Assembly: GCA_001642005.1 (NCBI GenBank)
Contig: LWCA01000134.1
Coordinates: 1 to 48,945 of the forward strand
Direction of reading: 5' to 3'
DNA length: 48,945 nucleotides
Source of the DNA: Intoshia linei
Lineage: Eukaryota; Orthonectida; Rhopaluridae
Shown here: piece after piece, positions 3,690-43,600 of the stretch
How the letters are laid out: each line of letters starts with the position of its first letter
How positions within the stretch are numbered: the stretch's first letter is position 1
Notes under the pieces: model-generated
Told to the model about the DNA's origin: nothing
Seen by the model: only the letters and a program-made list of their open reading frames with translations
Database searches by the model: none
Position numbers and translations under genes: made by a program

Positions 3690-5577
3690 ATGATGTTAAT
3701 AGTGTATTTAAATTTTTTGTTCGTCTTTGCATCTCTAAATCAAAGTTCATGCAATAGAAAAATATATTTATTGCAAAATGTAATAATAAACACTAAAAAG
3801 GTGCAAATTTTATCAAACTCAGTTTATGTCAACCCTATTATAGGATGGAAATCTTGTCTAACAGAATGCTGCAATAATGGTATATTTAATGAATAATATA
3901 ATACGTATTAGAATAATGGAGCACTGTCGGAAGTTCACACGATTCAAAGTTTGTGCTCGGGTTTAATTTTGATAGAAATTTACTGAATAATAAGTACATT
4001 ACAATGCATTGTATTGTTGAAAATATAACGGGTGCTTCGAATCGCGTTTCAGACTCTTCGCATAATGTAAATATTTAGATAAATGTGACACTACAATGTT
4101 TTTGTTTGAAAATGAAGGCTATACTTGCACAACTTTGAAATGTAAGGTTTGTGAATTTACACAAATACAAGATGCTATATTGATACTATCGGGTAAATTT
4201 AATGAAAGAAAATATAGTGATTTATCGGACGAAAATTTTATTTTAAGTAAAGGAAATTTTGACAAAATGGAAAAATTTATGAATAAGACCAAGTATATTA
4301 AAAACTACGTTGAGAAACTAAAAAAATTAGACATTGGTTTGGTGAAAACAAATACGACAAAGTCAATTTCACCACAAACTACTACCACTACGAACATGAC
4401 AACTATAACTAAAAAATTCACCAGTGAAATGAGTTCCACAGTTACAAAATCGCCTTACATTATAAAGAATTTAACAAATCATTTTATGACAACAAAAATT
4501 TTATTACTTACAACAAAAAACCTGAAAAAATTAGATGCCAATACCAGTACCACGAGTACAAAAATCCCTTTCAAAGCTCCAAGAATTTTGACAAATACTC
4601 CTTTTTCTACAATTCAGTCTACCTCAGAGACAATAAAAATCCCTAAAAGTTCAACAAATACAAATTTCTCCACTACAACTCAAAAAAATCATCCAATTAC
4701 CAAAAATATGACAAATACTCCTTTTTCTACAATTCAGTTCACCTCAGAGACAACAAAAACCCCTAAAAGTTCAACAACTAAAAATTTATCTGTTACAACT
4801 CAAAAAGATCATCCAATTAACAAAAATATGACAAATACTCCTTTTATTGAAGCCAGCATCAGCACAACAAAAACGTATAGAAGTGAAATGCCTCTAAAAA
4901 GTACTCCAATCTCTACTTTGACAACCCAAAATAGGAAATTAAGTACTAAAGAGCCAATTAACTCTTTAAATTCTTCTGTGTCATCAATAACAAAAGATGG
5001 AGTGACTACAGAATTTTCATTAAATGTTGTTAATAAGTCTACAACGACTTATATACCGGTTACATCTCGTGTAACAAACATTAGTACTCAAAGATTACCT
5101 AAGAATAATGATACAGTTGACCGCTCCGATGTAAACGTTAGTACATTTTTTACTCGATCAACACGTTTACAGTTAATACACGGGAAAATAAATTCAAATA
5201 AAACAAAAGACGGTATATCTACCCCTGCACATTTATTAACTACAATTAATACTACCAAAAAGATAATAAATAGTTCTATATTGACCACACATACAATTCC
5301 ATCTTTTACTAACATTTTTACTAAAGATATGAATACAACACTGAATAATTCCACTTTAAAACCTCACATAACTTCAAATAGAACCACCCAAATGAGACCA
5401 TTGGTAAATATGACAGTTTCATTTAACAGTACATCAATATATACCCTGAATACAACCGTCGATTTTAAAGCCAGGTCTGAAACCATTCACACATATATAA
5501 TTTCAGCGTTTACAATTAGTTTATATGTTGTTAGTATTGTTGCGGTAATAATTGTGGTATATCTGGCTCACAACTAA
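3690..5577 (+). CDS. MANEC-domain type I membrane protein with mucin-like stalk (paralog 1)
   Basis: Two exons, 3690-3879 and 4079-5577, are joined in phase 1 across a 199-bp intron and give about 562 residues. The ATG at 3690 opens a hydrophobic signal peptide (MMLIVYLNFLFVFA). Eight cysteines follow in the order C...C-x3-CC-x4-C-x13-C-x4-C-x2-C, ending near residue 90; this fits the MANEC/MANSC motif. The intron splits this domain right after the CC pair. Residues of roughly 150-520 are Thr/Ser-rich with many N-glycosylation sequons and two and a bit 40-residue repeats, as expected of a heavily glycosylated extracellular stalk. A C-terminal helix (IISAFTISLYVVSIVAVIIVV, about 535-558) leaves almost no cytoplasmic tail. 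An AATAAA lies at about 5645. The cell-surface location is inferred from the layout and the ligand is unknown. It is first of three tandem paralogs. Confidence 0.8.
4588..4850 (+). repeat. 120-bp in-frame tandem repeat in the mucin-like stalk
   Basis: Units start at 4588, 4708 and 4828; the third is only a start. Each full unit encodes 40 residues of the pattern TNTPFSTIQ-TSET-K-PKSST...TTQK-HPI-KN. The first two copies differ at a modest number of positions, so the duplication is fairly recent. The length is a multiple of three, so copy-number change would keep the frame and alter only stalk length. Confidence 0.9.
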
Positions 5578-5708
5578 ACTGCCCAGTTAACCGTTCCAAT
5601 GTAGTTAATAAACATTTACCAATAGTGTTAGTTTATTCACATTAATAAATAAATAGCACATGTATAATATTGAACACTGTATTGGACTTAGTTAATAAAT
5701 AACAAAAT

Positions 5709-8101
5709 ATGAATATTTGGTTTTATTTTTCTATATTTTTTTTGAATCTTATATACAAGACGATTTCGGGTAATTTGCAATGTGATGGTAATATATACTT
5801 AATTAAACATCTTGGACCGGGTATACTTGGTAATAGCACCATTATTAATCAGAAAGATTTTGATAATCCCGTCACTGGTTGGAAATATTGTTTCGCAAAT
5901 TGTTGCAATGATGGTAATTTTTATTGATAGAAAAATTGTATAGAGTAGAATCTACTCCAGTATTTTCTAGTCTAGAGGGCTAGGGAAATTACACGAATTT
6001 ATTGGAATTATAAATAATTTAGATTAATTTAACCTTCATTTTGTACAATACTAGCATTATTGTTATGTAATTCGAACAAACAGCAGGTAGCTCTGCCGAT
6101 GAACGACTTTTTAATTTTTAGAGTTGTAATTTATGATAATACTTATGATTTTAAAAAATAATCCAGAATTTATATTTTATAAATGCTGTAATTTTTTACA
6201 AAAAAAGGGGATTTGGTGGTTTGACCATTAAAATGTGTAAGTAAAAGATTCTCATGTGTCATACCTAATATTAATAAAACCGGTAAGAATCAGTGATATC
6301 ATTATTTCTATAAAATATATATTATAATTAGCTCAAGTTTCGACAATAAAAGCTTTCGATAAGTAATTTATTAGAAAATTATAATTTTTAGTAAATAATA
6401 GTCACTGAATTAATAATAATTCGTTTTTGATTCAACTGTCATATCATCCCCAAAAATTTGGCCGTTAGGTCATTTTTTGAAGTGGGATTATCATAAAAAA
6501 GGTTGGGAAACAAAATCTACTCAGTAGATAGCTACTATGTCATTTCGTTATTAAAACAGTTTTGTTGTTTGCATCTGAAACAAATGAGGAATTTTTCTAA
6601 TAACCTGGATACACTTGTAATTTTTTTAATCTGACCGATTTGAGAAATAATGTCCCTCTGATGGATTTATAACTTTAATAAAATGATAAAATATTTAGAA
6701 AAATGTGATAGCATGACATTTACGAAATCTGGGAATAATTATACTTGCACAAATATCCAATGTACAAATTGCAAATTAAAATTTGTACCGGAAAGTACAC
6801 TTATTCTGTTATACGGCATTGGAAAAAACTATACAAATTTAAACATACACCAACTGCATATAAAATTTCAAAAATTAACATATGAAAAGTTGACAAATTT
6901 GATGAACCGACGCAATATTATTAAAAATTATATTAAAAAAATGGTTAAAACAGAAAAAGCAATTGTACTAGAAACGACAACAGAAAAAATGAATATTAAA
7001 TCAACAAAAATGACTACTACAAAACAATTAATAAGGATAAATCAAACGGTAGAAAATAGCCTTAAAAATGTATTAAATGTTACGTTGGTTCAAATAGTTA
7101 CTACGCCCAAGACCATCCCAATACAAAATAGCACAACCACAATAAAATTGAATGAACAAGAAACGCAAATAAGTAATGAGGATAATAAAGTCATTGATAT
7201 CATGGAAAATGTTTTAAAAGATGATGAAATGATGTCATCAAATTTAATGAATATGTTAGAAAAAAATACGACACAATTAGATGTGGGAATCAATCAAACA
7301 CTGGATGCGTTAAAGGAATTAGAAAATGGTGTAGAAATGAAACGAAACGAATCAATAAATATATTGACCGATGAAAGTGATAAACAAAAACAAGTTGAAA
7401 TAGATAATGAAATGGCTTTAATCAAAATTGAAAACCAAGAAAAAATAAAAAAAGCTGAATTGTCCATAAACGAAGCTGCAAGAGGCATTATAATTGCTGC
7501 AGCTCATGAAGCTGAGAATATTATAGAACATGCAAAATCTGTTGCCAAAAATTATAAGGAATCAATGCAACACCAATTTGAGGAATGGTTAAACGATAAG
7601 AAACAAGTTGAAGTCGAGTTAATGAAATCCATGATTGACCAAAAATTGATTATTAAGACTGTAGCCATTGCAAAAATGAACAATCAGTTGGATTATGAAT
7701 ATAAAAATCAACAAGAAAATTTTAAAGATCGAATGAATATATTAATTCAAAATCATAATGAAACCGAGTCCCAAAATTTATCAAATTATAAAAAAATTCT
7801 TGCAATGCTTGTAAATTCTTATATAAATGGTTTAATCATTAATGAAACAAATAAAAATCATGGGATAGGGAATAATCCAACATACAATGTACTCAATCGT
7901 ACCAATAAAGTAAATCAAACTAATAATGCCATAATATACAAAGATCCAAATCCTTATCCATATGTGTATCTCTATTTAGTTCCTTCCGTTGTCATTTGTG
8001 TCGTAATTGTGAGTCTGTTCTTTATTTATAGTGTAAGGGATTATGTAAACAAGCATGTTGAAGTACTAACAATATCAAAGATTAAAAAGGAGAAGAAATA
8101 A
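5709..8101 (+). CDS. MANEC-domain type I membrane protein with coiled-coil stalk (paralog 2)
   Basis: Exons 5709-5913 and 6699-8101 join in phase 1 and give about 535 residues. A signal peptide (MNIWFYFSIFFLNLIY) is followed by the same eight-cysteine MANEC pattern as the upstream paralog: YCFANCCNDEKC, then YTCTNIQCTNC. After a Thr-rich segment, residues of roughly 280-430 are charged and Ala-rich with heptad-like spacing (IKIENQEKIKKAELSINEA; EAENIIEHAKSVAKNYKES), predicting a long helical or coiled-coil stalk. A transmembrane helix (VYLYLVPSVVICVVIVSLFF, about 490-513) and a short basic tail ending KIKKEKK complete it. The KKxx-like lysine ending could be an ER-retrieval signal, but it is not proof of one. 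The 785-bp intron holds a copy of the 'AGCTCTGCCGA' repeat (about 6072-6120). AATAAA lies near 8108. The function is unknown. Confidence 0.8.
6072..6120 (+). repeat. Dispersed repeat 3 core (intron of MANEC paralog 2)
   Basis: A copy of a conserved core, acaaacag-a-ctagctctgccga-g, here caaacagcaggtagctctgc. Other copies are at 8874-8915, 16586-16630, and reversed at about 30200-30240 and 30275-30312. The core stays recognisable while its surroundings diverge. Confidence 0.6.
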
Positions 8102-8344
8102 TTTTGAATAAATAATTACACCTTTCATATTACATTGCTATGTACTTCGTCATCGATTCGTTACACAAAATGGGTAACGCCAAATTTATTAATTTTTTGT
8201 GGTCATTTTTAACGGGTAATGCAATAAATTATGATTATTTAAACATTTTTTATTTACGACATTTGTATTTTAAATTTGTTGTAATTTAAATTGTTTTAAT
8301 GTTAACGTGGTACGTTCACAAAACATATACGTCACTAGCTAAAC

Positions 8345-8851
8345 CAGTGGTCCCGATTCAAATACAATACGGACCCCATTTCAAAATATTTATACTTTTG
8401 GATCCCAAAGGAAACATAAAATATAAAACGTTTATGAAAAAATTGAAGGTTTTTTCTCATAAGATTTGGTAAAATCGTTTTTTTCAAAAAAATATTTCCC
8501 TTAAGCGTTGTTAAAATTGGATTTTTATTTTGGGATTCGAATAAGGTTTCTCTGATAAGATTTGATAAAATAGTGTTTTTTAAAAAAATATTGGAAAAAG
8601 TCGATTTTCCCCTGAGGGTTTAAAATTGTATTTTTTATTAAATTTTATTAATGTTGGGATAAAAGTGGGTTTTTTGAAATAATAATGTACCGGTCGTCTA
8701 GGCTTTGGGATAAATTCATAACATTTGGCAAAACTGCAAAAATATTAAAAATAAACAAAAATTGATAAATTTTTTTTTATATTTCATTTAAATCTCAAAT
8801 TTAACTTAAGACTCCAGGAATATAGTTTTGTAGCCTAATCGGGAACCACTA
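8345..8851. mobile_element. hAT-like MITE with near-perfect terminal inverted repeats
   Basis: The left end is CAGTGGTCCCGATT and the right end AATCGGGAACCACTA, inverted repeats of about 14 bp. The flanks agctaaac and ggttagac agree at 5 of 8 positions, suggesting a worn 8-bp duplication. The interior has repeated motifs such as 'aagatttg-taaaat-gt-tttt-aaaaaaat'. A related interior lies within the composite at 26415-26910. No coding capacity. Confidence 0.65.
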
Positions 8852-8873
8852 GGTTAGACTGTTATACACTTTG

Positions 8874-8915
8874 TACGAACAGTACCTAGCTGCGCCAAGG
8901 GCGAACTTTTTTAAT
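8874..8915 (+). repeat. Dispersed repeat 3 core, second + copy
   Basis: Reads gtacgaacagtacctagctg followed by cgccaagggcgaac. It is the same core as at 6072 and 16586, and as the reversed pair near 30200-30312. Confidence 0.55.
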
Positions 8916-9156
8916 TCTACCAAAAAAATACATGTCAATAATAGAATCTTACATAAAAATGCTAAAAATTACATAATTTTGGGAACTATTGCTTTAAAGG
9001 TGACAGTAAATTGTGACATTCTTACTCTCTGTTTTTTTAATCATTTGTACACAATTTTTCATTTTCAAAAAGTTTAAAATTAAAGCAATAAAAATAATGC
9101 GAAGGAATCAATTATATAGATTTCCACACATAATTCTTTATTGGAAATGTGTAGAC

Positions 9157-10050
9157 CAGTGCTTTTCAAACTTTTTTAAACATTCACCCCCTGTGACGCA
9201 TATTTTTGTTCTATTCACCCCCAATAAAACAATTATTATGATATGTCATAATTGTGTAGGAATACACAATTTGCACTTATAAAATGTACTGAATTAATTA
9301 AATTTGAGTACACATGACGTCTTCACGTGATCACATCATTTTAAATTTTCATTGTTTGTTTTAAGCATCGTAAATAATGCATATTATTTTCAATATTTTC
9401 ATGAGAGTAAACATGTTTAAATCTACGTTATAGATGTCACTATAATTCAGAAGTAAAAAAATATAGTAATTGTGATTACCATAATTTATTTATTAATAAG
9501 AATATCAATTAGATAAGCAACTTTTAAAAAAAATTTGGTTAAACTGAATGTATGAAAGGGTTAAGTCAATTTTGTACACGAAACATCTAAATTTGGTAAT
9601 TTCTTTTAGAATCAGATGGAGATTTCTATATAAAATTTTGATAAAATTGGATTTTTCAAAAAAATATTTGTAAAAGGGGATTATTTCCTTAAGGGTTGGT
9701 AAAATATTGGTTTTTTGACATACAGTCAGACTTGTTGATAGTGAACTAATAGTGAACTTAACTAATATTAACTTGACTTATATAGAAAATAAACTTAGAT
9801 TCATGATAAATAATGTTTCATTTAACTGTCATTTTCATTGTTCATTATTTTTTTATAGTGAACATTAAAATAATTCGGAACCAAATGTTCACTATTCACA
9901 AGTCTGACTGTATTTGACTAAATTAAATAAAATATGTTAAAAATTTATTATTTACCCCTATTCACCATCAATCATCTAAAATTTTAGTATTCACCCCCTC
10001 ATAAAACTATTCACCCTTGGGGTGCACAGTCACCCCCATGAGAAGCACTG
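9157..10050. mobile_element. hAT-like non-autonomous element with perfect 8-bp target duplication
   Basis: An 894-bp element with ends CAGTGCTTTTCA and (reverse complement) CAGTGCTTCTCA. Subterminal 'attcaccccc' runs occur at both ends. It is flanked on both sides by gtgtagac (9149-9156 and 10051-10058), an exact 8-bp duplication as expected of hAT integration. The site is inside an older repeat: 'ttggaaatgtgtaga' plus 'gttcaat' is contiguous in the related copy near 857-876, which serves as an empty site. It contains a second, younger MITE at 9723-9910. No transposase ORF. Confidence 0.9.
9723..9910. mobile_element. Pogo/Tigger-like MITE nested in the hAT element
   Basis: 188 bp starting CAGTCAGACTTGTTGATAGT and ending with its near-perfect inverse (...ACTATTCACAAGTCTGACTG). 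TA dinucleotides flank both ends (9721-9722 and 9911-9912), the target duplication of the Tc1/mariner/pogo superfamily. Terminal inverted repeats extend about 25 bp. The interior is AT-rich and non-coding. Confidence 0.9.
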
Positions 10051-10747
10051 GTGTAGACGTTCAATCCATATTTTTTTGAGTTGTAAGATCAATATTTACT
10101 TTTTCATTTTAAATTAAAATTTAATTTAATGATAATATATTATAAATTATTTTTCACCGTGAATGCGTAGATTTCTGGAATTAAAATTTTGTATATATAT
10201 CAACTGGAATAAGCTGTATCAGGATTAATTTTTTAAAATTCTAGGGCTGTTTTCATTTTTAAAAAGGGTAATCTGAGTTTTTGATCGTGAAAATTTCCTT
10301 TTTCAAGGTTTTCATTTATGATAATGTTTATGATTTTCAAAAGTATCTCAGAATTTATGTTATATAAAATTCTAAGACTTTCTTAATTAATACAAAAAAG
10401 GGTTATTTGTGGTTTTGACCGTGAGGATATAAGATTTTGAAATTGAAAATTATCATAATATTAATGAATTTAAAACTTTTTATTAGAATGTGTATTTTTT
10501 ATAATTCTAGGACGGGTTTGAATTTAAAGCAAAGGACAATTGGGGTTTTTAACCATGAACGACTCAATTTCTGAAATTGAAATTTGCGATAAAACATAAT
10601 TCTAAAAAAACTGTTATAGAAATATGGAATTTGTAAAACGACCCCTCTTACTTTCTTAAATAAACTGGATCAAACAAACATACATTTTTAACCATTTCAC
10701 TAAACCATTTTAACCACCATTAATAATTTTTAATATAATATTAGTAA

Positions 10748-11105
10748 CAAGATACAATTGTACCATCTGTAAAATTTTTTAAATTCTAGTGCTGTTTTCA
10801 TAAAAAAAGAAGGGTCATTTGTGATTTTGGCCCTGGAGATATAATTTTTTTAAATTCTCTAACTGGTTTGATTTTCAAAAAAAATCAATTGGGGTTTCTG
10901 ACCCGTACGATTTGAGTTTGGTAGGTTGAAATTTAGTTTGCGAACACCCCCGGAAAAAACTGTAATTGAAATGTGGACTTTATAAAATTCTAAGACTGGT
11001 AGTTATTTCAATAAACGATAACACAAACAAATATTGCATAGTATATTATAATATGCTATGATTATATAAGTAATAACACACACACAAACAAAAATCGCGT
11101 AGCAT
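10748..11105 (+). repeat. Dispersed repeat 2, copy a
   Basis: Begins near 'tacaattgtaccatctgtaa' and ends at 'caaacaaaaatcgcgtagca'. It includes the conserved stretch 'actgtaattgaaatgtgg' followed by 'tataaaattctaagactgg'. Sister copies lie at about 16222-16548, 19860-20097 and 25990-26385, all on the same strand. Non-coding. Confidence 0.7.
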
Positions 11106-11186
11106 TTTATATAAGGATGATTCAGACTAAAACTAGTACATAAATAGTAGTAGATTAGTTCATTACTCATTACATTCATAAGATCA

Positions 11187-11281
11187 TTACTAATGATATA
11201 TTAAAAATTATTTTCCACCGCGTATTTATGGATTTCTGAGGTATAAATTTTTTATATATATCAACTGGAATAAGCTGGAAA
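11187..11281 (+). repeat. Dispersed repeat 1, later + copy
   Basis: Repeats the block 'gatatattaaaaattatttt', 'atttctgaggtataaa' and 'atcaactggaataagctg' seen at 934-1045 and about 10122-10221. The copy is truncated right after 'aagctg'. Confidence 0.65.
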
Positions 11282-12147
11282 TTGAAAAATTCCATATTTA
11301 CTAAACATGCCATTAATTAAACCCATTTCAAATTTACCAATTGACATATATTGTAAATGAGTGTACCAAAAAATAAATATAAAAAATTTACACATAGCTA
11401 CAAAATTATACTAATCACTGATTAGTATTCATTAATTTGGCACTGAAAAATAACTTCAACCAACAAAAAAATAACACATGTTGTATAATATAATAGCTCG
11501 GGAACAATCCCATTATGACGATTGAATTTAATAAATACATGATAAATGATAATGTATTGATTATTTAATATTTGAACAGAAATCAAAATCCGTGATCATT
11601 TCAAATTAAAAATATAATACCATTATAAATGAAGTTTTTAATTCCATTTAATAAACCATATCTTTCCCACATAATAAATAACTGATTAAATGAAATTATA
11701 TGTGTTGCATATTTTATAATTTTCAATATTTACATTTAACGTTAATATTTTCAAAAACAAAAAATATATAACAATAGAACGCTACATAACAGTATAATTA
11801 TAATGAGAGCCTTGAACCTTAATCAAATGAATAAGATAGTAAAAAAATAGAAACTTCCACATAGATGAATGAAAATTTGTCGATTATAATGTTACAAAAA
11901 TAAATCAAATTAAATGAATTTCCAGCTCAGAAAACGACACAACACAAGTTCGAACAATTACACAGAATAATAATGCATGTTGCAATACTTCTAGCCGTAT
12001 CCTCAAGTTAAAAATAGTGAGAAGTAAACATTACGTTTCATACATATGGGATCAATTGATTTATTTAATTTTTCAAAATTTTGATCAATACTCGAAAATT
12101 CACATTTAGTTTTAAATAATTGGTAAAATTTTACATTCATTTTTAAA

Positions 12148-13087
12148 ATGTACAAGATAATTAATGTCAACATAATTATTGCGTGTATATTTTTAAAATT
12201 TGTCCTACACGCTAAAGCAAGATCCTGTACGGAAAATTTGACCTATGTGCCAAATAACACAATTTACGACGATGACAGTGGATCAATACTATTTTCAAAA
12301 TTATATAATAATTTTGAAAATAATTGGAAAAATTGCTCTATGGAGTGTTGCCTTGATGGTGATTTCAAAATTTAATGTATATTTTTGAAAAATATATTTA
12401 GATTCCTGTAATGTTGTTTCAATCACCTTATTTCCTGGTACAGATTATTTTGAATGCAATGGGCTTTCCTGTTCAACTTGTACGTTTCAAGAAGGAAATG
12501 GGTTTTCAATATTTTTTAATGCAACATATGATAATGCCGGCTTTTCAGAGTTGTCTCAAAATTATATAAATATTAATCAAAATACTTTGAATTCATTGGT
12601 AGGTTCCGAATTATTAGACGTATTTTCACGTTCAAATGTTAAGACAACGACAAGTACGACACGCCATACAACTGAACAAAATCAAGAAACGACGATAAGC
12701 AATATATTTTTATTTCAAGACAAAGAAAACTCTTCAAATGAAACCATACCGTTCTTTAAACAATACAATATCAACACAAACCCCATTCTGCCTCTGATTA
12801 TCATTTCAATCGTATTTTTGAGTGTAAGCATCATTACACTTGCAATGTTTCTCATACGCAAATTTCTAAATAGTATGGACAAAGATGTCCGATACCAAAA
12901 TCTAAAAAGCACTTTTGATTTACACGAATCAATAAATGATTCAGATATTGAAGAATCACCAATTAAAAAAAAGATCAATTTTAGACACAATGAAGAAAAT
13001 GTACAATCAGAAGAAAACGTTAATTTATTAGATGAAGAAATTACAAAATATGAATCAAAAATGTTTGATAAAGAGGAAAATGCTTAA
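12148..13087 (+). CDS. MANEC-domain type I membrane protein with acidic cytoplasmic tail (paralog 3)
   Basis: Exons 12148-12358 and 12402-13087 join in phase 1 over a 43-bp intron at the same site as in the two upstream paralogs and give about 298 residues. A signal peptide (IINVNIIIACIFLKFVLHA) precedes the eight-cysteine MANEC motif (NCSMECCLDDSC; FECNGLSCSTC). The stalk is short and Thr-rich. The transmembrane helix is at about 199-223 (ILPLIIISIVFLSVSIITLA). Unlike the others, it has a cytoplasmic tail of about 75 residues rich in Glu, Asp and Ser (NDSDIEESPIKKK; SEENVNLLDEEI). 'ESP' and 'ND-SD' could be kinase sites, and 'ENVNLL' resembles an acidic dileucine sorting motif; both are inference. 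No known partner. Confidence 0.8.
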
Positions 13088-14948: not shown

Positions 14949-17900
14949 ATGAGTAATACGAAACTGAGTGTTTTAGTGCAAAAATGCGAAGAATTGAAGA
15001 AAAAAATGGTTTTGATGGGTGATATTATAACGAGTATAAATTAATTTTCGTTAGAGGGAGACAGAAAGGCATTTTACGAAAATTCTGAATGGGAACAAAA
15101 GAAGAACAAAGACACTATATCGAAATTAAGAATGAAATACAAAGAAATTTATCATAATAGAGCGGATAAAATGAAAGTTTCATAAACTAAAATATATTAA
15201 TAAAATTATGATATAGGCTGACGCAGAGTTAATATCAAATTCACTGGCAGATGCACCAGAAGAAAAAAAATGTTTTAAGAATAAACCTGGATTGGTATGT
15301 AGATTATACTAAAAATTTAACCGAAAAATAGATAGCTCTAGATTTAATAAATAATAAACACAAAGACTATGTAAATCAATTAAATTATTTACGATACACA
15401 ACAGAAAATTACAAAAAAACTTTGTCAGCCACAGAGACAAAATATGATGAAATGGTGAAAGACGTCTCAGAGTCGAAAGCAACAGACCAAGGAGAATCTG
15501 ATGTAGCAAAGGTTTTTATAGTTGGTAGAAATTTTATATTATAAACACAGGAAACACGAAATTTGGAAAATAAACTGGAAAAAAGTAAACTCAAATGTCG
15601 TGAAGCAATACACATACATCAAACGTATGATAGTATTAAATACACAATGTTGCAGGAATGTCAAACCTTTAGTCAAAAACTTGACATGGTGGAATCTGAA
15701 ATTCAATTGTAATTTTAGATTTATAGAAAAATTTTAAAATTTCATCTTAGAAGTAACGCCGAACATGAAAATCAAAAGAAAATAAACGAACAGGCAACTT
15801 TGAGTAGAGACACATCACGAGTTATATTAGAAAAACAAGAAAAAGAAATTTATGCTTCTAGAAAAAAAAGAGAAGTTGATTTATCTAACGTTCGAAAACA
15901 AGCAGAAGAAAAAAGATTACAATATGATCGAAGAATGGTATATTTTAAGTAACTTATTAATTTTTAAAATATTCAGGCGGCTACATCATTGAAAGACGAA
16001 GAAGGTTCAAATATAGAAAAATATGAAAAAATGAATGAAACTGATCAAAATAAAATTACAACATATGAACAAGCCACCATAAAAATAAAAGAAGCCACCG
16101 GTGTAACTGATACACAGGTAAGTATATATTTTTTAAATCTTTCAATCTATCAATATTGACAAAATAAATTTCAATTACCATTGATCGAAAAAAGATATTA
16201 TATATTACTAAATTGACTGTCATGTACTACGTACAAACAGGATACAACTGTATAACCTGTAAATTTTTTGAAATTCTAGGGCTGTTTTCATTAAAAAAGA
16301 ATGGTAATTTTGGGTTTTGGCCATGAAGATATAATTTTTTTAATTCTCCAACTCGTTTGATTTTCAAAAAGAGAAACAATTGGGGTTTTTAACCCGTAAA
16401 ATGTGAGTTTGGAAGGTTGAAATTATGTTTGCGAACACCCCCGCAAAAAACTGTAATTGAAATGTGGACTTTATAAAATTCTAAGATGGGTAGCTATTTA
16501 AATAAAGCTGAAAACACTGTCACAGAAACAAAAATCGCGTAGCATATTATAAGTTATGACTATCTTGAATGTTTTGTAGTTAGTACAAACAGCACCTAGC
16601 TCTACCGAGGGTGGACTTTTCTAATTATCAAAAAAATAAAATCTAATATAAAAATGCCGCTACTTACTATTAAAAATCTTTTAAAAAATACTTTTATATA
16701 AGTTAGGATGAGTAATTTGTTGTTTTATTATTGAAATTTAATGATTTTAAAATATGTATCAGAATGTAGATTTTAAAAAATTGTTGGTTTCGTTTTTTTT
16801 AAAAAAAAAGAGATAATTGGTGCTTTTTACACTGAAAGACTCAATTTGTAAAATCTAATTATCGAAATACAATATTAAAAATTGGCTTTTTAAAACTCTA
16901 CATATCTTACTTTCGTAAATAAGATTGAACAAACAAAACTTAAATTAAAAAACTACAACCCTCTTTAAAATTTGCGTAAAAATCCCCTCAAATCTTGGTT
17001 AAAAGTTCCTAAAAACCCCCTTGAAATTTTTACCTTACGCGAGCCTTTTTCGGGTGACCTCAACGCAGTGTTTGTAAAATGGGCCTCATTTTTCCAAATC
17101 GATCATTTTTAAAAAATTATATTTTCGACCATTATAACCATATTGTTTACTAAACTGTCAAGGCCAGAGTTTAGCCTCCAGACACTTGAGAAGTGGCTTG
17201 GTTAAGACATTATTTTCATTATGATGTTTCCAAAAATAAAAAATAGGTATCTATTTTTTTTTTTGGGTGGATTTCGCACTTGGTAGGTTCGGCTCTGATT
17301 TCAACATTTAATCGGTTTACAATGTGTTTTTAAGCCGAGAAACTTTTGACCGATTAAAATTTTATAAGTATACATATAATTAATTTATTATAGGAAGTAG
17401 TAATACGATTTGAAAATCAAGGTGAAACAGAAAAAAGGTTACAATCCATGAAGGAAGATAACGAAAAATTATTAATCAGACAGCAAGAAGAATACGACGA
17501 ATTGAAACAGAATTTTGAAAATATGAAATATACCGGTGAAAATAAGATATCAGAGTAAGTTTAATGGCTGATAAAAAATTAACAAAATCTAGTGGTGAAC
17601 GTGTACTGGAAGAAAAGTTTGACGAGTTAAAATCTATTGAAAATACGTTACAATTAAACAATAAGAATTTGAATAATTCGACAACTCTATTATTGGCCGT
17701 AAAATCTGGAATTAATCATTTAACTGACAAACTAAAACAACTTAAAACGGTAAATAAAACTACATTATTATTAAATTATGTATTATTATAATAATACAAA
17801 ATAACATAATAAAAAATTTTTTTAAAACTCAATTTTACTAGACATCAACAGAACTACAAAAGGTAAAAATACCACCAGAATCTGATGAATATATACTGGA

Positions 17901-19859: not shown

Positions 19860-20097
19860 TTATGATTTCAAAGTCCGTATCAGCGTATATTTATTTTTAA
19901 ATTCTCCAACTCGTTTGATTTTACAAAAAGAGGGACAATTGGGGTTTTTACCCGTAAGATGTGAGTTTGGTAGGTTGAAATTTATTTTGCTAACCCCCCT
20001 AGAAAAAACTGTAATTGAAATGTTGACTTTATAAAATTCTAAGACTGGAATTATTAAAATAAAGCTGGACACACACACAAACAAAAATCCCGTAGCA
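19860..20097 (+). repeat. Dispersed repeat 2, copy c
   Basis: Contains 'aaattctccaactcgtttga', 'actgtaattgaaatgttg' and the terminal 'acaaacaaaaatcccgtagc'. It is 5'-truncated relative to copies a and b. Confidence 0.65.
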
Positions 20098-22488
20098 TAT
20101 TATTATATAATATTACATTTTTACAGATGGTTAAACTCACATTGTATATGCGTGAAAAGTGTACATTTTGAACAAAAAAAGTGTTCTATAGAACTGTAAA
20201 TTAATATAAATATGTAAATCTGATTCTAATAAAAAATTTCGTTAATTTATGGGTGATTTTATGTTGGCTCTTTGATTATATAATGTTAATTTTATGTTTG
20301 TCGTCATAAATCATTAAAATCGATGATCATTACAATAAAATGACCATTAAAATTGGATTTTTTTTAGATAACTTAATAAAATTTGAAAGGTCTATTCATT
20401 AGCTATCTTTTACACTTAAGTGGTCGGTTGATTCACATAGCCGCCATAGAGAAATTTTCATTTTAAAATATAAAAGTTAAGAAATAATCTGAAAAAATTA
20501 AAATAATGAACAAATCGTTAGAATATTGTTAAATTTTATTAAAATTTTATATTAACCAATTAATATAAATACATATTAATGTTTAACAGATATCCACCAG
20601 AAAAAATCTGAAAATTTCATATCATATCCTTACGAGACAAAAAAGTTTAAACTAGTCATGTAAAAAGCTAGAATTTTAAAACTGGAATAACTTTTCTACA
20701 CGACCTCTAAAAAAATCTGAAAAACTACCTGCTCTCTGATCTGAGAGGATTATAATGATTATTATCATTATTAATGATATATATTTTAACATGTTAAATT
20801 TTTCAGTGTTGAACCGTGTGATGAAATAAAATACATGTAAAATGTTGCCACTAATTAAAATAAAGAAATGTACATTGTATATGTTTGGTGTTTAAAATTT
20901 AATTTTTATCAAGTATACTGCCAAAAAATTGTTTTTAACTCGAAACCTGTCTTAAAATCTGTTTTAAGAGGCTGTAAATTAGAAAACCACCAATAAATAT
21001 TTATGTAGGTCATATAAAAGGACTACTAGAACTAAGTAATTGGTACTGTGCTTATTTATAAATCCAGATTCTTGAATTTAGTTTGCACAAATTATGTATT
21101 TGATGTTCTACAAATCCTTTAATAAAATAAATTAAGAACATGGAATAACAACTAATAATTATTACATGATAATGTAAACATTTCATTTAAAGTCGTCATT
21201 CATTCTAGAAAAACGTTTTGAAATTCAACATCAAATAAAAGCTTGTACGGTAATGACTAATTACTAATCTAAAAATACTTTTTCACCATCCAATACAATA
21301 GTAATATTAAAACTTTATTGATTATTGTTTAATGACTAAATTATACATTAACCCTTTCACTGCGTAGCGTTAGTGATAACACATTTCAATTTGATAGAAT
21401 CTTTATTTCCATTTACACGAGACACAAGATTATATATAAAATTAAACAGACACTTCAAAATATACTTTATTGTAAAATAAATGAACTCACACTACACACT
21501 GTCTAATACTATTTTATGATGCATCACCACATGTCTGAAATTTACGTTTTAATTCAAACATGTATTATTTTTAAATTACCTATGTGAAAATGTATGAAAA
21601 TAAAAGAATAAAATTTTTCAAAATTATGCTGTGTATACTATAGAATACACAGACAGTGTTAGGGTTAACAAGATTAAGTCATTTTTCAGAGTTCTTATCA
21701 TTTAGGTATAACAGTGCATTCCAACAATATAATTACAAAATCCCAACAATATAATGATATGATTCATCTTTTTCGTAATGTATTTGCAATGTAAATTTTG
21801 CATGATAGATAAAAACAGTAAATTTCACGTTTTCCAATCGCCGGTTCGGATAATTTTTTTTCATCTTTTAGAAATAGGTATTCAGTGAGAACTGAGTGAG
21901 TCACCCTATTCGACAGATGGGCACATTTTATAATTTTAGTAGTTTTGTCGACACCAAATGTATCCTTTACGTATATAAAATTGACTGTCTGTGTGTTACC
22001 AATTAATTAAAAAATTAAACACTTATCTTCATTTAAAAAATTCAAAATTCCTAGCATTTCAAAAAAAAGTGTTTAGAAATTGAAGTCTTCAGTGTCAAAA
22101 CTTATACTCTTTGATTTTTGAATTAATGAAAAATGTCCTAGAATTTTAAGACTTACATTTCGGATAGTTTTTAAATATCTAACATATTTACATTACATCA
22201 AATAGTATTTTAAGAATACCAATGTATTGACAATATCTGCGGATACTCTTAATCGACCTTAAGTAATTAATTCTCAGTGCGGGTATATTTTGTTTACATT
22301 ATCGCTTCTCATTCCTTGTCTTCCGAAAATTTACAATTCACTTATCAAAATTTCAATCTGAATAAGTGACGACTTCACAGTCAAAAAAGCATTTTAGTAT
22401 TCATATATTTTTTTCTGAAATATTTTATTAAAACAAAAAATGTATAATTAACGGTCCGAAAATTAAAAAAAAAAAAATTATTTTGATA

Positions 22489-22600
22489 GAGCTTATTCCA
22501 GTTGATATAAATACAAAATTTAAACCCCAGAAATCTACGCATTTCCGGTGAAAAATAATTTTTAATATATTATCAACCAATATTTTTCAAATATTTAGAT
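22489..22600 (-). repeat. Dispersed repeat 1, reversed copy
   Basis: Reads, on the + strand, 'agcttattccagttgatat...gaaatctacgcatttccggtg...ttaatatattatcaacc', the reverse complement of the block at 934-1045. It is followed by 'gaaatatgggtgaaaatcta', which also recurs near 29570 and 35000, so the full element is longer than the core. Confidence 0.65.
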
Positions 22601-23581
22601 TAAAATAAAAATTGAAAGTGTAAATATTAATCCTACAATTTAAAAAAAAGAGAAATATGGGTGAAAATCTATATAATTCATTCCTTCGGAATTTTTTTCA
22701 TTGCTACAAAATTTTTAAATCTCAAAACTACAACTACAATTGTACCAATTTTAGGATTGACTGTTTTTATTTTATTTTTAATATTATAGACACATTCTGA
22801 CTAATAAATTAAAAAAAAGAGATAAAAATTGTTTTTAAAATTATTTACGCAAATGTTAACAAAACAAAATAAAGATAAAATAATTCACTTTAAAGTTAAA
22901 ATTAATGATATGATGGTTCAACCTGAAACAAATTTATAAGTCATTATTAGTTATTAAACAGCTAATTCAGATAGCGAGACGAACGTAATTTGAAAAACTG
23001 GTGTAATATGAATCTACATTGTAAAAAAATTCTTTTTTTAGATGAAAATGGTTGTACCCTCCATACCTTTATAAATTATGGCTATTACACTCTAAATTGT
23101 ATCCACCTGCCTATAAATATGAAAATATCACCATGTGTGGTGTAATATCAAATGGAGGGTTAGATAAAGTCCTCTGATATTCAAGATTATAATTTTTATA
23201 ATGCTCATATGTTTAGAATTTAGAAAAATGAGGGCCCCATTTTACAAAAATTTCGTTGAAGAAAAGGTTTGCAACATACATTAAACTATACTACACCACT
23301 TTTAACTAGGTTAACTTTTCAGACTAATTGACAAAGATTTAACTTTATTTGAATAATATTCAAAAATTTATAACAAACTTATCATTCATAACTCTGACGT
23401 TACTAGAGAAATTTATGAATTTGAAATTAGCAATTGTGTGGAAATTTGTTTTGTAAAAATGAGTTCACACGTGTACTATTTAAACTTGATTTGCAATAGA
23501 ATGCAAACTATATCAATATTAGCATAACAGTTGCAATATAAAATACAAATAGCGAACCTGGATTCATTAAAATTTGCAAAT

Positions 23582-25460
23582 ATGAAAAAATACCTAAACA
23601 AAGATATTTTGCTGGGATTCGAAAAATATAAGGTTTTTAAATAAACTTAAAATTATATCATTTTTTACAACAATAAAAATTAAATGCATGAAATCACTGA
23701 CAACTTTAGTGAAACCACGCATGATATTACTTTTTAAAACGAACCAAAAATATCGTGAATGTGAACAAAATAACTTTAAATTTTAGTATTCATCAATCGA
23801 TACTAGTCCAATCAGTAAATATGTAATGCATCCTTTTTGGGATAGGGTTGTAGAGGTAATTTTATATGCACCATAAAATTGAATAATATCGATTTAGTAT
23901 GTACCAAAATGGGTTGCTCCAAATATTCTCACATTGGGTGGTTTTCTTTTTGCACTTTGTTCATTTTTACTATTTGTATATTACGATGATGATTATAATG
24001 CAATGAGCTACGCATCCACCGTGAAAATTCCTCCTTTTGTATGGATACTTTCTTCAATATTTATTTTTCTGTCGCATACTTTAGGTACGAAATTTCTCAA
24101 TTAAGTTTTTATTTAATTTAGATGGTATCGACGGAAAACAGGCCAGACGTACAAACACATCATCACCAATTGGTACTAGTTTATCAATATTCACATTAAT
24201 ATCCTATTTAGGCGAGTTGCTTGATCATGGCATCGACAGTCTAGTCATGATATTTATTGTTTCAAACTTTTACACTATATTTGGAAGAGACCCTACCTAC
24301 AGCATATCCCCTTTTTTCTTTCTTGTATTTACAATGATTATATCAACATCATTTTGCCTTTCTCATGTTGAAAAGTACATAACTGGAGTCTTGTACTTAC
24401 CATGGACATACGATCTTAGTATGGTGGTAATCTTTTCATCTTTCCAAATTAATATTATTATTGATTTTAGTTTGAGATTGTTAATTAAATTTTTAGTTTA
24501 CAACAGTCATGTATCTAATTATTGCAATTTTTGGAAACGAATTTTTGCACAACTATGTTTTAAAAGAAAGTAAATTAACTGTTGCCATCTTTTTAATTTG
24601 GGTGGTTATTTGTAAGTTTTTTCAATAATAAAGTGGATAATGATTATAATACACACAAATCTTATTTGAAAATACAATGTTCTTTGCTTTATATCATTTT
24701 TAGGTATAATTATATGCTACTCAACAGCCGTTACATTATATAATATTTACAGGTTATTACATAAATATTTCGAAATTTTTTATTCAAAATTTCACGCTTT
24801 ATTAAAATAAAAATAAACATTTAGTTCATATATCAATAAAACAATAATCAGCAAATCATTGATTGATTCTATCAGACCGATAATACCCATTATTACCCAC
24901 TACACTGTGGTTATATTATGGGTTTTGTACTCCCCCAATAACATTATAGAAAAGAAACCTAGATTGGTATATCTTGTGACTGGAATTATCTTGTCAAATA
25001 TAACGGTATATATTATTTTTATTCTCAGACTATTCTCAACGGGGTTGAGTTTAAAGAGGTATACGTCAATTTTTAAATTGTATACATTTTAATACAGTAC
25101 CTGAGGGTTGACGGTACGAAATGTTTTTGGTCGTCTAATTTAAATGCTTACAAGTAGATTCAACTAATAAATATTTTAATTTTAGATTCACATCATTGTT
25201 AGTGGAATGTCAAAAACAATTGCACCAATTTTTAACGAGTTGACCATATTTTTATCTTGTGTTGCTGCATTTTGTACATTATTCAAAGTCAATTTTGCAT
25301 CAGAAATTATCATTTCATATGCCACTTTATACATCATAATATACTACCATTTTAAATACGTTGTCGGAATCGTAATTTAATTTATTATTTTTGTAATTTA
25401 AAAAAAATTTAGATGAATGAATTGGCCGCTCATCTTAAATTGTCCTTATTTTCCATATAA
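23582..25460 (+). CDS. SELENOI: Ethanolaminephosphotransferase 1-like CDP-alcohol phosphotransferase
   Basis: The enzyme transfers phosphoethanolamine from CDP-ethanolamine to diacylglycerol (Kennedy pathway, ER/Golgi membrane). Ten exons fit in phase: 23582-23632, 23787-23855, 23898-24084, 24122-24172, 24212-24426, 24497-24611, 24704-24752, 24852-25005, 25186-25371 and 25413-25460. They give about 374 residues. The CDP-alcohol motif DG-x2-AR-x8-G-x3-D-x3-D is complete: D106, G107, A110, R111, G120, D124, D128. SELENOI-type landmarks are YVMHPFWDRVV, WVAPNILTLGGF, LSHVEKYITGVLYLPW and a C-terminal NELAAHLKLSLFSI. Multiple hydrophobic helices follow the motif, as expected. The vertebrate selenocysteine-containing tail is missing and no in-frame TGA is read through. 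Choline-type specificity cannot be excluded from sequence alone. AATAAA lies at about 25487. Confidence 0.9.
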
Positions 25461-31291: not shown

Positions 31292-34200
31292 ATGGCTATA
31301 ATAATTTCGATAGAAACAGTCATAGTATTTTTTGGTACATGTATTTTACTGTATATTTACGGTAATTTAACGAAGCAGCATGTAGTTGTAACATTTAGTA
31401 CCCTTCTTTCCTGGGGTTTTTCCTTTCTTATAATTTTTTACCTTCCAATAGACATTAGCGAGGTATTTTTGATAATATACCAATTTAGAAAAGTTTAGAC
31501 AACTTACAGACAATGTTTGCATTTAAAGAATTTTAGTCTAGTAGTAAACAATTCTATATCAAATGTAACAAATTCTTCATATTGCAACAAGCCATTTAGT
31601 TACGTGAACCACCAGTCCCTTGTCGTTTTATGGAGAACATTATATTGGACCATGCAGGTATTGACATGGTTGTTACTTCCTGCAATGAAATCCTATGTTT
31701 GTTCAGGAGAATTTCGAGTTTCAAAAAAAATTTTGTATAGCATCAAAAACAACATTTTGTTTTATGGAGCATACTTGTTGGCGTGCATTGCTTTTTTAAT
31801 TTACCTTGCTGTTAAATCACCTGATATGTTGAAATTGTAAGATTTTTAAATCCAATGTTAACTTTTGTATAGCAAGAACCTTATGACGTTAGCCTCTGCA
31901 GTGAGCACAACATATGGGATTTTTTTCATGTTGCCTCTACTTGGATATGGACTAGTCAATATTCCAAGACATATTTTTTTCATTGCTAATTACGAACATG
32001 TGCTGACTTCAAATTACTTTCAATTGAGTAAAATTAACGAAGAATTTGAAGAAGCTAAAATGAATATGCGGGAGATTGTTTCAGTAATTTGAATTTAACA
32101 TTTATTTTAAAATTTTCCAGGAAAGCAGAGCCATTGATAGACTTATACCTATGGACGATGTAAACAGAAAGTGTATAGAAATTGTACTACTCAACGTACG
32201 AAAAATTATGCTTGAATTCAATTTTATCAATTTAGTTACCACCGGATGTAACAGAACTGGATGATGCCAATATTGAAATTGTTGATGTCGAAGCGTTCAC
32301 AGAAAGCGTACGTTATAAATTTACATTACTTTTCAATATCATGTATTTTTATACTTAAAATTTTTAGAATTACGTGAATTTAAATCGGCGTCTTATTCAG
32401 AGGAAAAGAGAATATTTACGTACCAAAGCTAAATTTCATCAACATTTTACTATTGCCAAAAAATATAGAAAAATACACGAAACAATTACCTCATGCGATG
32501 AAAACATTAATACGAAATTATGTAACATAATATAGTATATAGTATAACATCATATAGTTAGATTTTGGCACATTGCATGCCGTCGAATAGCGTTTTATTT
32601 GATATTCGGGTGTATGCTAATCATGACTTTTGTAATAATTTGGTCTGAATGTACTTTTTTTATTTCAAAGCCAATTTTATCTATATTCACCATTTTCCAC
32701 CTTTACACTCGTCAACACTATTTATTGGCAGAGGTATTTTATCTATAGTTTTTATATAATTATTTTTAGGGGTTCTATGTTTTGATTCTTTCTTACATGT
32801 GCTACTGTACCTATTCCACCGTGTTTAATATTAAATTTCTGCATTACTACTACTTATCACCTGACCATCTTACCGATTCATATAGCTTGCTTTTTTGTGG
32901 ATCGTATCATTCGAGATTACACCAATAATACATTTATTTAGAACACTATGTCGCCTTATGCCAGCACTTTGTCTTAATTTTTTGTGTATGCTTCAATTGG
33001 ACAATTCCAAGATTATTAATAAAAATTTGGACACACAAACTGCGTTTACTGAGGTATTTACTTTGTTCAATAAGGCTACTTTCTCTAGGATTTTTATGTA
33101 TCCTTTATAATTATTTAAAAAGTAATTTATGTATTTTATGTGACCAAGTTTATCACCTTATGTTTATTCTTTAGATAATGGGTCATCTCAGTATTGTTCC
33201 ATTTATTACTAATGGTTTTAACATTTATTTTCCTATCCTTCTCATAGTTATTTGCTTCTTATTTCTCATAAAGATTGAAAATTGCTTACAACGTTGTTGC
33301 GGCATCGACGTTTTTTCTACACAACAGGATGATGATGTGGTTTTCAATCGAGTTGAAAATGGTCGATTATTAGTGGAATTGGGTAATTTTTTTTTAATTT
33401 TTACGAGTGTATCGTACCAAAGTGTTAAGTAGGTTTTGAACCTCTGAGCTATTCCCTTTCACTTAGTGGAAGTAAAATCAGATCTATTTTTTTACCTAAA
33501 CAATAATTTTTTGTTTACATTTTTCAGCTTTTCTTTGCAAAATCTTATTCAACAGTAAAGATTTTCAGTAGGCACCAAGAGAAAATTGTGTTACTTATTT
33601 ATGGTTCACGTTTGATAGAGTAAGATTTTTTTGATTTTATTAGACGTAAGTCACAAATTAGACAATAATTATTTGATTTTGTACAATAATTGTAATTCAT
33701 TTAAAAGTAGAGGTGTCAGACTCAATTTGTTTTCCGGGCCAAATGTGAAAAAAAATTATTACGCGGGCCGCACAAAAAAATCTTTACCCAAAAAATTATG
33801 TCAAAGCTAACAGATTTAATTAATTCATAATAATTTTAATTCATAAAATGAAATATGAAACAATAAAAATGGAATAAGTGTAAAAATTGTTATAAAAAAT
33901 AAAAATTTATATTATAACGCGGGCCGCAAATGGCCCGAGGGACGCATAATTGACACCCCCGTTTAAAAGTGAATCAACTTTATATACGTATTAGTTTAGT
34001 TCTATTTAACTACAGAAATGACAGTTATTAATATTTAAATATTAATTGATACTTTAACTACGAGATATATTTTTAAAATTTTTTCAAGAATGTAAAAATT
34101 ATAATTCATATTTGCATATTATTTTATTTTTAAGCAAAAATTTTTTTCAGTGTTATCCTTACTTATGTAGGATGGTTAAAAATGTATCTGATTATTTAAG

Positions 34201-40624: not shown

Positions 40625-43600
40625 TTACATTGTTCTTCCAATGAGTTCGTCTATGGAAGCGGGAGAATATTGATCATTACCAATGCGTACAAATATAACG
40701 TTTCTATCAAAATAAATAGTGAATCGTCCAAATCTGTATAATGGAGTATTGTGATATTTTTTATCTACCAATGGAACAAAAACAATATTGTGTTCGTATC
40801 CCTTTTTTTCGACCAATTCTTTCGCGGATGTAGCAGTTATGCATGGGTTGATTTGAGCGTACTAGAAATAAAATGATGAAATATCAAAACTAACATTACG
40901 TTTGAACTGCTAGGGTAGTTTGAAGTTCTCGAGGGTTCTGGTATATTATTGTTCATAAGTTGAATTGCTCTATTGAAATTATCTAAAAAATTGCAATAAA
41001 CAATTTAAAAGGTAAAAACCTTTTACAGATTGATCCTTGGCAAGTATCTCGGGAAATTCGTTTTTCCAGAGTGAAAACCATTTAGCAATCTGTTTAATAT
41101 TTGCATTTTTCACTTTTAACCACCCACCTAGAACTAGAAGCCATTTGGGAAAAAAACATTCCACCATTATCTTACTGAGTAAGCTAATTGGCATTACATC
41201 ATTCCATATAACAACATTTTCCCATTTATCTAAAAAAGTATAATTGATCAGTTTATCATGAATGCAAATTTTGTGATAAAAGGCACTCAAGATGAGTCTT
41301 AATAAAAGAATATTTTTTTACTTGCAAATCTGAACATAGTAGTTTATAAGTTATTTCATTTTTAAATAATAATTATGTTAGAAACTTTTTTAAAAAAAAT
41401 GATATTTTTACTTTCATTATTCAGCAATTTACACGTGTAAATACGATATAAACCACTGGATCCATACGCTCAACCACCATGTAACTGGTCTAACGACATT
41501 TGAGATCCTGTTAATTTTCAAGGGTTAACGCTGATGTTCAGATTTCATAATTGAAAACATTACAATATTCAGTACAAATTAAACCTTAATTAAGACACAT
41601 TGTGGCTGCATGTTGAACATGGCATTATAAAAAAAATCTAAATTTTTTTGTGGACCCAATGGATCAAACGTACCACCCCGACAATGGATGATATAATTGA
41701 CTCATCTGCAAATTCTATTTAAATTAAACATCATCGATCAAAATCCTTAATAATAACAAAAAAATTACCCATTTTTTGATTTTGGGGGTTAATTTCAAAT
41801 CGATTCATTTCTTGATAAAGTTTAGGGAAGATATTGGTTAAAATGAAACTATACACATTTCTGGGATCAAAAATACCGATCCATGGTTTAAGTATATTTT
41901 TAGCTGAATGGTCATGTGGTCTCCAATTTTTTAGAATGTTAGCAAGTTTTTGTTGGATAAGTTCTTCAATCTGATTCATTTGCGGAGCTGAATAGTAAAA
42001 ATGAAAAAATTGTCAAAACCAGACTACCATCAAGTATATCTTTCCAAATAATGGTCCATTCATGGATAGGCACCTTATCCAAAGTAGGATTCCAATTATG
42101 AATATAGTTGAGCAATTGAGGTAAAATATAATCATTCACCATGTGGTCATATATTGGTTCAGATATTATATTTTTATAATCTCTGACAAGTATAAAAACC
42201 GGTTCCGAGTAAACAACAGGGTTCCAGGTTCTAAATGAAACATTTGCAAAAAAGACTACATTATTACCGTATTGTTTCAGTAAATTTTTTAAAAAAAATA
42301 TTCCAAACAAGTTCGTCATAACAGGTATTTAAAGGGCTTTTTTCGATTTTCCAATTTTCATATAGCTGGAAAAAAATATCATAGTACATGGTGGGTGCTT
42401 CAAGAATATTCCAATGGCATAAATGAGCGTCAATCTGGACAAAAATATTTAAATAAATAGTTTAGACAAATTAAAAATTACCAATGGATATAGTAAAATT
42501 GGTGGAATTTGTCGATAGTTTATGAATTTAAGATAACTGACATGTTCAATAAACATTTTTTTGATAAAATTGCCGCAAAAAATAATTTTAGCGTCATTGT
42601 CCGCACAATTTGATAATTCCATTTTATATCTAAAGGTTTTTAAATTCGAAATCATAAACAAATTTACTCTTTAATTGACGCAATCATTTTCTTTATATTA
42701 GAAATAGCTGTGACAGTATCATTAACATTTTCTCGTGAAAGGTCATACTCACTTTTCAATTTATTTAAATTTGCATTGAGAGAAACATCTTTTTGTTTAA
42801 AACTTTCAACTTCATTTCGCATTTTTACATACATGTTCCGAATTGCATTGAGAAGTCTATCATTTTTTCCAGTATAATCAGCAGAATGTACATTTGATTT
42901 AAAGGACAAACAGCCATATCCTAAATTCAATGTAATTAGGTTTACACTAATTTACTAAAAATTAAACACGATTCATTACCACTTATAACTTTAGCAGACT
43001 CCCCCGTCATGTCCACAACTTTGTCACCGTAAATTTCATAATTTATATTATTTTCAAAAGGTTCATTATTTTTTAGTACGTCTCCAGCATCTTTGTCATT
43101 TGGCTATTAAAATAAATAATTAAATAATCAAGAACAACTACTTTATAGTCTTTATGCCAAGGCTTGATAGTAACCACATTCTTTTTCAATACATTATCGG
43201 ATTGCATCTGTTCATCATACTTGTCAAATGTATCTTGTGTGACAATTTTATCTTCTTTGTAATAACCTAATGCGCTTTTTCCCTGGCGAGCAGAAACTTT
43301 TATAGGATTAACAATACCTTGTAAATTTTTTCCGAGTCCTCTTCCGGGAACGTGGCCCATCTAAAATATTTTGTTAAGAATCTTTAAATTAATTTATTAA
43401 CTTTTTGCAAGAGTTTCATTCCAATACCATAAGTTCGGCTGTTGTACGTAGAACTATATAAAAAGTTATAAACACCAAAATCATTTTCATTTAATTTTTT
43501 TAATTAAAAACATACGATTTCATTGTTTCAAAAGTGTCTTCAGTACATTGCATATTTTTATGTTGCTTTATATTTTCTGGTTCGCATTCGTCGTCCGAGT

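What the first reader, a model, noticed from the sequence alone, without database searches (positions are those of the whole stretch)
3690..13087. Tandem family of MANEC-domain surface proteins with interchangeable stalks
Three neighbouring genes share a signal peptide, an eight-cysteine MANEC domain with conserved spacing (C-x3-CC-x4-C-x13/15-C-x4-C-x2-C) and a phase-1 intron right after the CC pair. After the domain they share no visible similarity: one has a repeat-bearing mucin-like stalk, one a long helical stalk, one a short stalk with an acidic cytoplasmic tail. A conserved head with unrelated bodies suggests a locally expanded cell-surface system (adhesion, recognition or protease inhibition). 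I know of no described family with this combination.
Basis: partly seen in the sequence, partly recalled or inferred. Interest (0 to 1): 0.75.

Follow-up and report, generated by a model that had tools for sequence, protein, structure and literature searches.

The report
Three tandem MANEC-headed surface protein genes
A tiny parasitic worm (the orthonectid Intoshia linei) carries three neighbouring genes for membrane proteins that share a cysteine-rich, MANEC-like head but have different stalks and tails; it is most likely a small local duplication of a known animal domain, not a new kind of system.

Summary
Three same-strand genes (3690-5577, 5709-8101, 12148-13087) encode a signal-like N terminus, a head with eight cysteines at matching spacing, a stalk and one transmembrane stretch, with a phase-1 GT-AG intron at the same place in the head. 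The third model equals a deposited protein, A3Q56_01697 of the orthonectid Intoshia linei, whose UniRef name already says 'Seven cysteines N-terminal domain'. MANEC is the best reading of the head: trimmed heads match MANEC (18.5, 19.0 bits) or KIAA0319_N (19.2, 16.0 bits), all below curated cut-offs; 0 of 9 cysteine-fixed shuffles do. AlphaFold gave no confident head, so the fold is untested. No fourth copy was found in the 34.65 Mb assembly, but diverged copies could be missed. 'Interchangeable stalks' is not supported: head half, stalk and membrane stretch lie in one exon, and genes 1 and 2 share sequence past the cysteines. Likeliest history: tandem duplication with fast stalk divergence. 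Likeliest function: a membrane-held protein-binding head (inferred). New member of a known kind; modest interest.

The parts
3690..3879 (+). g1 exon 1: signal-like N terminus and first half of the head (Cys 1-4)
   Evidence: open frame, GT donor at 3880, phase 1; genome search with g1 returns it; hydropathy
3880..4078 (+). g1 intron, 199 nt, phase 1
   Evidence: GT-AG, homologous position in all three genes
4079..5577 (+). g1 exon 2: second half of the head (Cys 5-8), Thr/Ser-rich stalk (S+T 37%), membrane stretch within 533-562, practically no tail
   Evidence: 503-aa frame; hydropathy; composition
4589..4845 (+). 120-nt (40-aa) tandem repeat inside the g1 stalk, 2.1 copies, 91% matches
   Evidence: TRF
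5709..5913 (+). g2 exon 1: signal-like N terminus and first half of the head
5914..6698 (+). g2 intron, 785 nt, phase 1; holds one copy (6115-6183) of an interspersed repeat
6699..8101 (+). g2 exon 2: second half of the head, charged Pro/Gly-poor (perhaps helical) stalk, membrane stretch within 487-519, short basic tail
   Evidence: 479-aa frame
12148..12358 (+). g3 exon 1: signal-like N terminus and first half of the head
   Evidence: the spliced model equals P0001 / A3Q56_01697
12359..12401 (+). g3 intron, 43 nt, phase 1
   Evidence: the deposited model uses the same join
12402..13087 (+). g3 exon 2: second half of the head, short stalk, membrane stretch within 194-227, acidic tail with YQNL and ENVNLL
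   Evidence: helix 199-228 in the model, 10-residue blocks from 201 to 230 at pLDDT 85, 92, 86

Best explanation
The three genes are tandem duplicates of one ancestral type I membrane protein of the orthonectid Intoshia linei. Each displays an N-terminal MANEC-type (PAN/apple-class) disulphide-bonded head on a stalk above the plasma membrane. The head most likely binds a protein partner. The stalks (Thr-rich and probably O-glycosylated in g1, charged and perhaps helical in g2, short in g3) set reach and spacing, and only g3 has a long tail that could link binding to the cell interior. Shown: open gene models, cysteine pattern, shared intron position, C-terminal membrane stretch, tandem order. 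Inferred: the transcripts of g1 and g2, the fold and disulphides, surface location, ligand binding, glycosylation, helical stalk, any signalling or uptake. The stalks differ, I infer, because they diverged quickly after duplication (with repeat growth in g1), not because modules were exchanged.
For: Spliced models, eight aligned cysteines and a common phase-1 intron; pairwise head scores beyond 1000 shuffles and no similarity of stalks above shuffles. MANEC matched over profile positions 2-88 of 89 in g3 and 3-83 in g1; g1 and g2 match KIAA0319_N, g2 weakly PAN_4; 0 of 9 cysteine-fixed shuffles match any of these (7, 2). UniRef names g3 a 'Seven cysteines N-terminal domain-cont...' protein. 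MANEC of HAI-1 has eight cysteines in four disulphides and is a PAN/apple subclass suggested to mediate protein-protein contacts (passages of PMC12940448). Stalk repeat.
Against: All Pfam scores lie below the curated cut-offs, g2 has no MANEC match of its own, and one shuffled control reached E 0.0023 with an unrelated family, so E-values of this size are not proof alone. AlphaFold block pLDDT in the head is about 25-43. No relevant PDB relative by sequence. No ligand, expression or localisation data. g3 kinship to g1 and g2 does not exceed all shuffles when cysteines are masked. Signal peptides of g1 and g2 are weak by the 19-residue window.
Confidence: 0.7

Rival explanations
1. Protease-inhibitor accessory proteins, HAI-1-like: the heads regulate pericellular serine proteases.
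For: MANEC is known from the membrane-bound inhibitor HAI-1, where it is said to attenuate inhibition (PMC12940448 passages).
Against: In HAI-1 Kunitz domains inhibit; none of the three proteins has a Kunitz, PKD or LDLa match up to E 1. The two Kunitz matches found in the assembly lie together on contig C17 beside a VWA domain; no MANEC-like head was seen by eye in the first 6,000 of its 27,870 bases.
Confidence: 0.08
2. A mucin-like surface coat: the heads hold glycosylated rods in a glycocalyx rather than recognise anything specific.
For: g1 stalk 37% Ser+Thr with a 40-aa repeat and 25 N-glycosylation sequons in g1.
Against: g2 and g3 are not mucin-like (S+T 12% and 18% of the whole protein).
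Confidence: 0.15
3. True modular exchange: a head cassette was joined to three unrelated stalk genes.
For: Stalks and tails show little or no similarity above shuffles (stalks z -0.5 to 0.7; membrane stretch plus tail z 1.3 to 2.8).
Against: Head half, stalk and membrane stretch lie in one exon; g1-g2 similarity runs on past the last cysteine; stalks of this composition diverge fast (general knowledge).
Confidence: 0.08
4. The head is an independent cysteine-rich domain that only resembles MANEC.
For: All matches are sub-threshold and the fold could not be modelled.
Against: All three heads reach MANEC-group families among 24,736 models and none of 9 cysteine-fixed shuffles does; cysteine number equals HAI-1 MANEC; UniRef name of g3.
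Confidence: 0.1

Closest known systems
MANSC1 and similar MANEC type I membrane proteins (architecture recalled; the domain paper, Guo et al. 2004, was seen only as a reference entry)
   Same: signal peptide, N-terminal MANEC, Ser/Thr-rich stalk, one membrane helix
   Different: not compared by sequence here; here three linked copies with three different stalks
HAI-1 / SPINT1 (PMC12940448 passages)
   Same: N-terminal eight-cysteine MANEC on a membrane-anchored protein
   Different: no PKD-like, Kunitz or LDLa match here
KIAA0319 N-terminal domain (Pfam KIAA0319_N)
   Same: best Pfam match of the trimmed g1 and g2 heads, below cut-off; its kinship to MANEC is recalled
   Different: no PKD domain match here (PKD repeats of that family recalled)
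A3Q56_01697, Intoshia linei, UniRef 'Seven cysteines N-terminal domain-cont...'
   Same: identical to g3 over 298 aa
   Different: nothing; it is g3

Membership tests
MANEC domain (PF07502) | curated Pfam score of 25.5 bits | tested here: not met
   g1 18.5 and g3 19.0 bits, g2 no MANEC match. Below cut-off, so I call the heads MANEC-type, not Pfam members; near full-length alignments, and 0 of 9 cysteine-fixed shuffles match
MANEC domain (PF07502) | eight cysteines, four disulphides (as described for HAI-1) | tested here: inconclusive
   eight aligned cysteines in 3 of 3, so the count is met; pairing untested
MANEC domain (PF07502) | N-terminal position in an animal membrane or extracellular protein | tested here: met
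   hydrophobic N terminus before the head (clear in g3, weaker in g1 and g2) and one C-terminal membrane stretch in 3 of 3 by hydropathy; animal, Intoshia linei
MANEC domain (PF07502) | PAN/apple-type fold | tested here: inconclusive
   AlphaFold head pLDDT about 25-43 in two jobs; no fold search run on it
HAI-1 (membrane Kunitz inhibitor) | Kunitz domains after the MANEC | tested here: not met
   no Kunitz match in 3 of 3
Head-plus-interchangeable-stalk exchange system | an intron as module boundary between head and stalk | tested here: not met
   the intron lies inside the head; second head half, stalk and membrane stretch are in one exon in 3 of 3. Other recombination points were not tested
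Large genome-wide family | further paralogues outside the cluster | tested here: inconclusive
   none in protein searches or motif searches; but the Pfam model search missed even the window copies, so diverged or differently split copies could be missed

The most novel reading that the evidence does not exclude
A parasite-specific set of surface recognition proteins in a highly simplified animal: one MANEC-type head retained for a common ligand (host or self) and presented at three heights and with three different cytoplasmic ends, so that the same contact is read as passive coat (g1), spacer (g2) or uptake/signal (g3, with YQNL and ENVNLL sorting-like motifs).
Probability: 0.1. Interest if true: 0.55.

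Novelty: new member of a known kind. Interest (0 to 1): 0.3.

Why it matters
It describes MANEC-type proteins and their tandem expansion in an orthonectid, a highly simplified parasitic animal (abstract of PMC12249979). I found no paper on such proteins in orthonectids in the listings (listings only, open-licence library). g1 and g2 had no match at E <= 1 in the public protein search, which looks only at proteins of 0.55-1.75 times the query length, so two genes may be missing from, or modelled differently in, the public annotation.

Tried and rejected
Pfam search of the assembly with PF07502 and PF23597 gave nothing; since the first missed the window's own copies, which are split by an intron, it says nothing about absence. 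COX1 (PF00115) also gave nothing and did not help to identify the organism; the organism came from the name on P0001, and innexins (26 matches) fit an animal. Profile search of the PDB with the three heads: 0 matches up to E 10; P0001 alone: 4 matches, E 0.3 to 2.4, not relevant. NCBIfam: two weak unrelated matches. Two AlphaFold jobs on g3 left the head unmodelled, so no fold search was run; in the second, the alignment (A2) placed the first residues of the exon-2 pieces, with the fifth cysteine, wrongly at the first cysteine, and two further attempts were no better. A MANEC-Kunitz (HAI-1-like) gene was looked for on contig C17: two Kunitz domains and, downstream, a VWA domain (35.2 bits), no MANEC seen by eye in the first 6,000 of 27,870 bases. 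Heptad test of the stalks: g2 reached by 8 of 100 shuffles, g1 by 49 of 100, not significant. Sorting motifs in the g3 tail: YxxPhi in 4575, acidic dileucine in 1864, both in 853 of 10,000 shuffles, not significant. Literature: 'MANEC' alone gave 405 papers, and the 40 listed are oncology papers by title; 'MANSC domain' gave 26 papers, 24 listed, none on orthonectids by title; a search for any three of 'Intoshia linei', MANSC and three general words gave 1,009 papers, 12 listed, none on this by title.

Full report
Observation. The three genes are open models on one strand. After joining at GT-AG sites they read 562, 535 and 298 residues. Each begins with a hydrophobic stretch (best 10-residue window 2.51, 2.10, 2.96) and ends with one strongly hydrophobic segment (within 533-562, 487-519 and 194-227). 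By the stricter 19-residue window only g3's N terminus passes 1.6. The intron splits the third codon after CC, phase 1, in 3 of 3.

Chance. The half-motif W-x2-C-x3-CC occurs three times in the window against 0.01 expected. Head alignments scored 202, 119 and 95 against maxima of 85, 58 and 68 in 1000 shuffles; with cysteines masked only g1-g2 stays clear (124 against 59; g1-g3 50 against 53; g2-g3 38 against 58). Thus g1 and g2 are plain paralogues, and g3 is joined to them by cysteine pattern, the WK motif and the intron position.

Organism. The spliced g3 model is identical over 298 residues to P0001, named hypothetical protein A3Q56_01697 of Intoshia linei, on a contig of 48,945 bases (the window's length), with a UniRef name beginning 'Seven cysteines N-terminal domain-cont'. 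This identifies the contig as orthonectid and shows that the depositors' model uses the same join; it is not transcript evidence. g1 and g2 had no match at E <= 1; those searches consider only proteins of 0.55-1.75 times the query length, so fused or truncated models would be missed.

Head identity. Full-length proteins gave weak MANEC matches for g1 and g3 and a weak KIAA0319_N match for g1; g2 gave neither. Trimmed heads gave: g1 KIAA0319_N 19.2 bits and MANEC 18.5 bits; g2 KIAA0319_N 16.0 bits and PAN_4 12.0 bits; g3 MANEC 19.0 bits, aligned over 2-88 of 89 positions. None passes its cut-off. Of nine controls in which all residues but the cysteines were shuffled (seven, two), none matched MANEC, KIAA0319_N or PAN; two matched unrelated families, one at E 0.0023, so such E-values alone are not proof. 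A review of HAI-1 describes MANEC as an eight-cysteine, four-disulphide PAN/apple subclass suggested to mediate protein contacts (passages of PMC12940448). The agreement of three heads on one superfamily, the cysteine number and the UniRef name make MANEC the best reading. The fold itself remains untested: AlphaFold placed the head at pLDDT about 25-43 with one sequence and with five rows, while the membrane helix 199-228 was confident.

Stalks. g1: 37% Ser+Thr between head and membrane, with a 40-residue repeat. g2: Pro/Gly-poor and charged, perhaps helical, but the heptad test was reached by 8 of 100 shuffles. g3: short. With membrane ends set by me at 559, 512 and 220, the tails are 3, 23 (net +4) and 78 residues (net -7). 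Stalks do not align above shuffles (z -0.5 to 0.7) and membrane stretch plus tail hardly (z 1.3 to 2.8), but g1 and g2 share about 32 residues just past the cysteines (score 63, maximum 65 of 1000 shuffles). The second head half, the stalk and the membrane stretch are in one exon in all three, so the intron offers no head/stalk joint. Divergence after duplication is therefore preferred over exchange.

Extent of the family. Protein searches of the 34.65 Mb assembly with head or exon sequences of g1, g2 and g3 returned only the cluster. W-x2-C-x3-CC occurs at 24 places (11 for the reversed control), but the second half-motif follows within about 1.5 kb at only 3 of 24, all in the window. Without W but with a donor site there are 12 places (9 for the reversed control), of which 3 qualify, again the window's. 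The Pfam model search of the assembly is uninformative, since it missed the window's own genes. Relatives that are more diverged, or have a longer intron, may exist.

Mechanism. Most likely these are cell-surface proteins whose heads bind a protein partner, held at different heights; this is inferred from the domain and the architecture. HAI-1-like inhibition lacks a Kunitz domain. A coat function is plausible for g1. The g3 tail has YQNL and ENVNLL, which resemble sorting signals (motif definitions recalled), but both appear in 853 of 10,000 shuffled tails, so this is only a lead.

Verdict. A real, small, tandem family with a known type of domain in an unusual animal; new member of a known kind.

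Noticed in passing
window 10877-11015, 16368-16506, 19926-20064; 921-1055, 10101-10235, 11162-11296; inverted arm 22466-22617: Degenerate interspersed repeats (135-139 nt and shorter, copies 67-88% alike, inverted arm 86% complementary) scattered outside the three genes' exons in both orientations; a 69-nt copy of a related family lies in the g2 intron at 6115-6183.
   Followed up: partly
window 5578-5708: Only 131 nt separate the g1 stop from the g2 start, with four AATAAA words inside; possibly a very compact or co-transcribed pair.
   Followed up: no
window 12359-12401: A 43-nt intron of 14% GC, used also by the deposited g3 model.
   Followed up: no
window 24085-24573, 31499-31840, 41966-42328 (-), 43073-43360 (-), 47605-48174 (-): Neighbouring frames match CDP-alcohol phosphotransferase, LMBR1, GCFC and G-patch (TFIP11-like, recalled), and weakly, below cut-off, ELM2.
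   Followed up: partly
L056 1645-1995, 3459-3722 and 4988-5692: Contig C17 of the same genome has two Kunitz domains (53.9 and 67.4 bits) followed by a VWA domain (35.2 bits), perhaps one multi-exon protein.
   Followed up: partly
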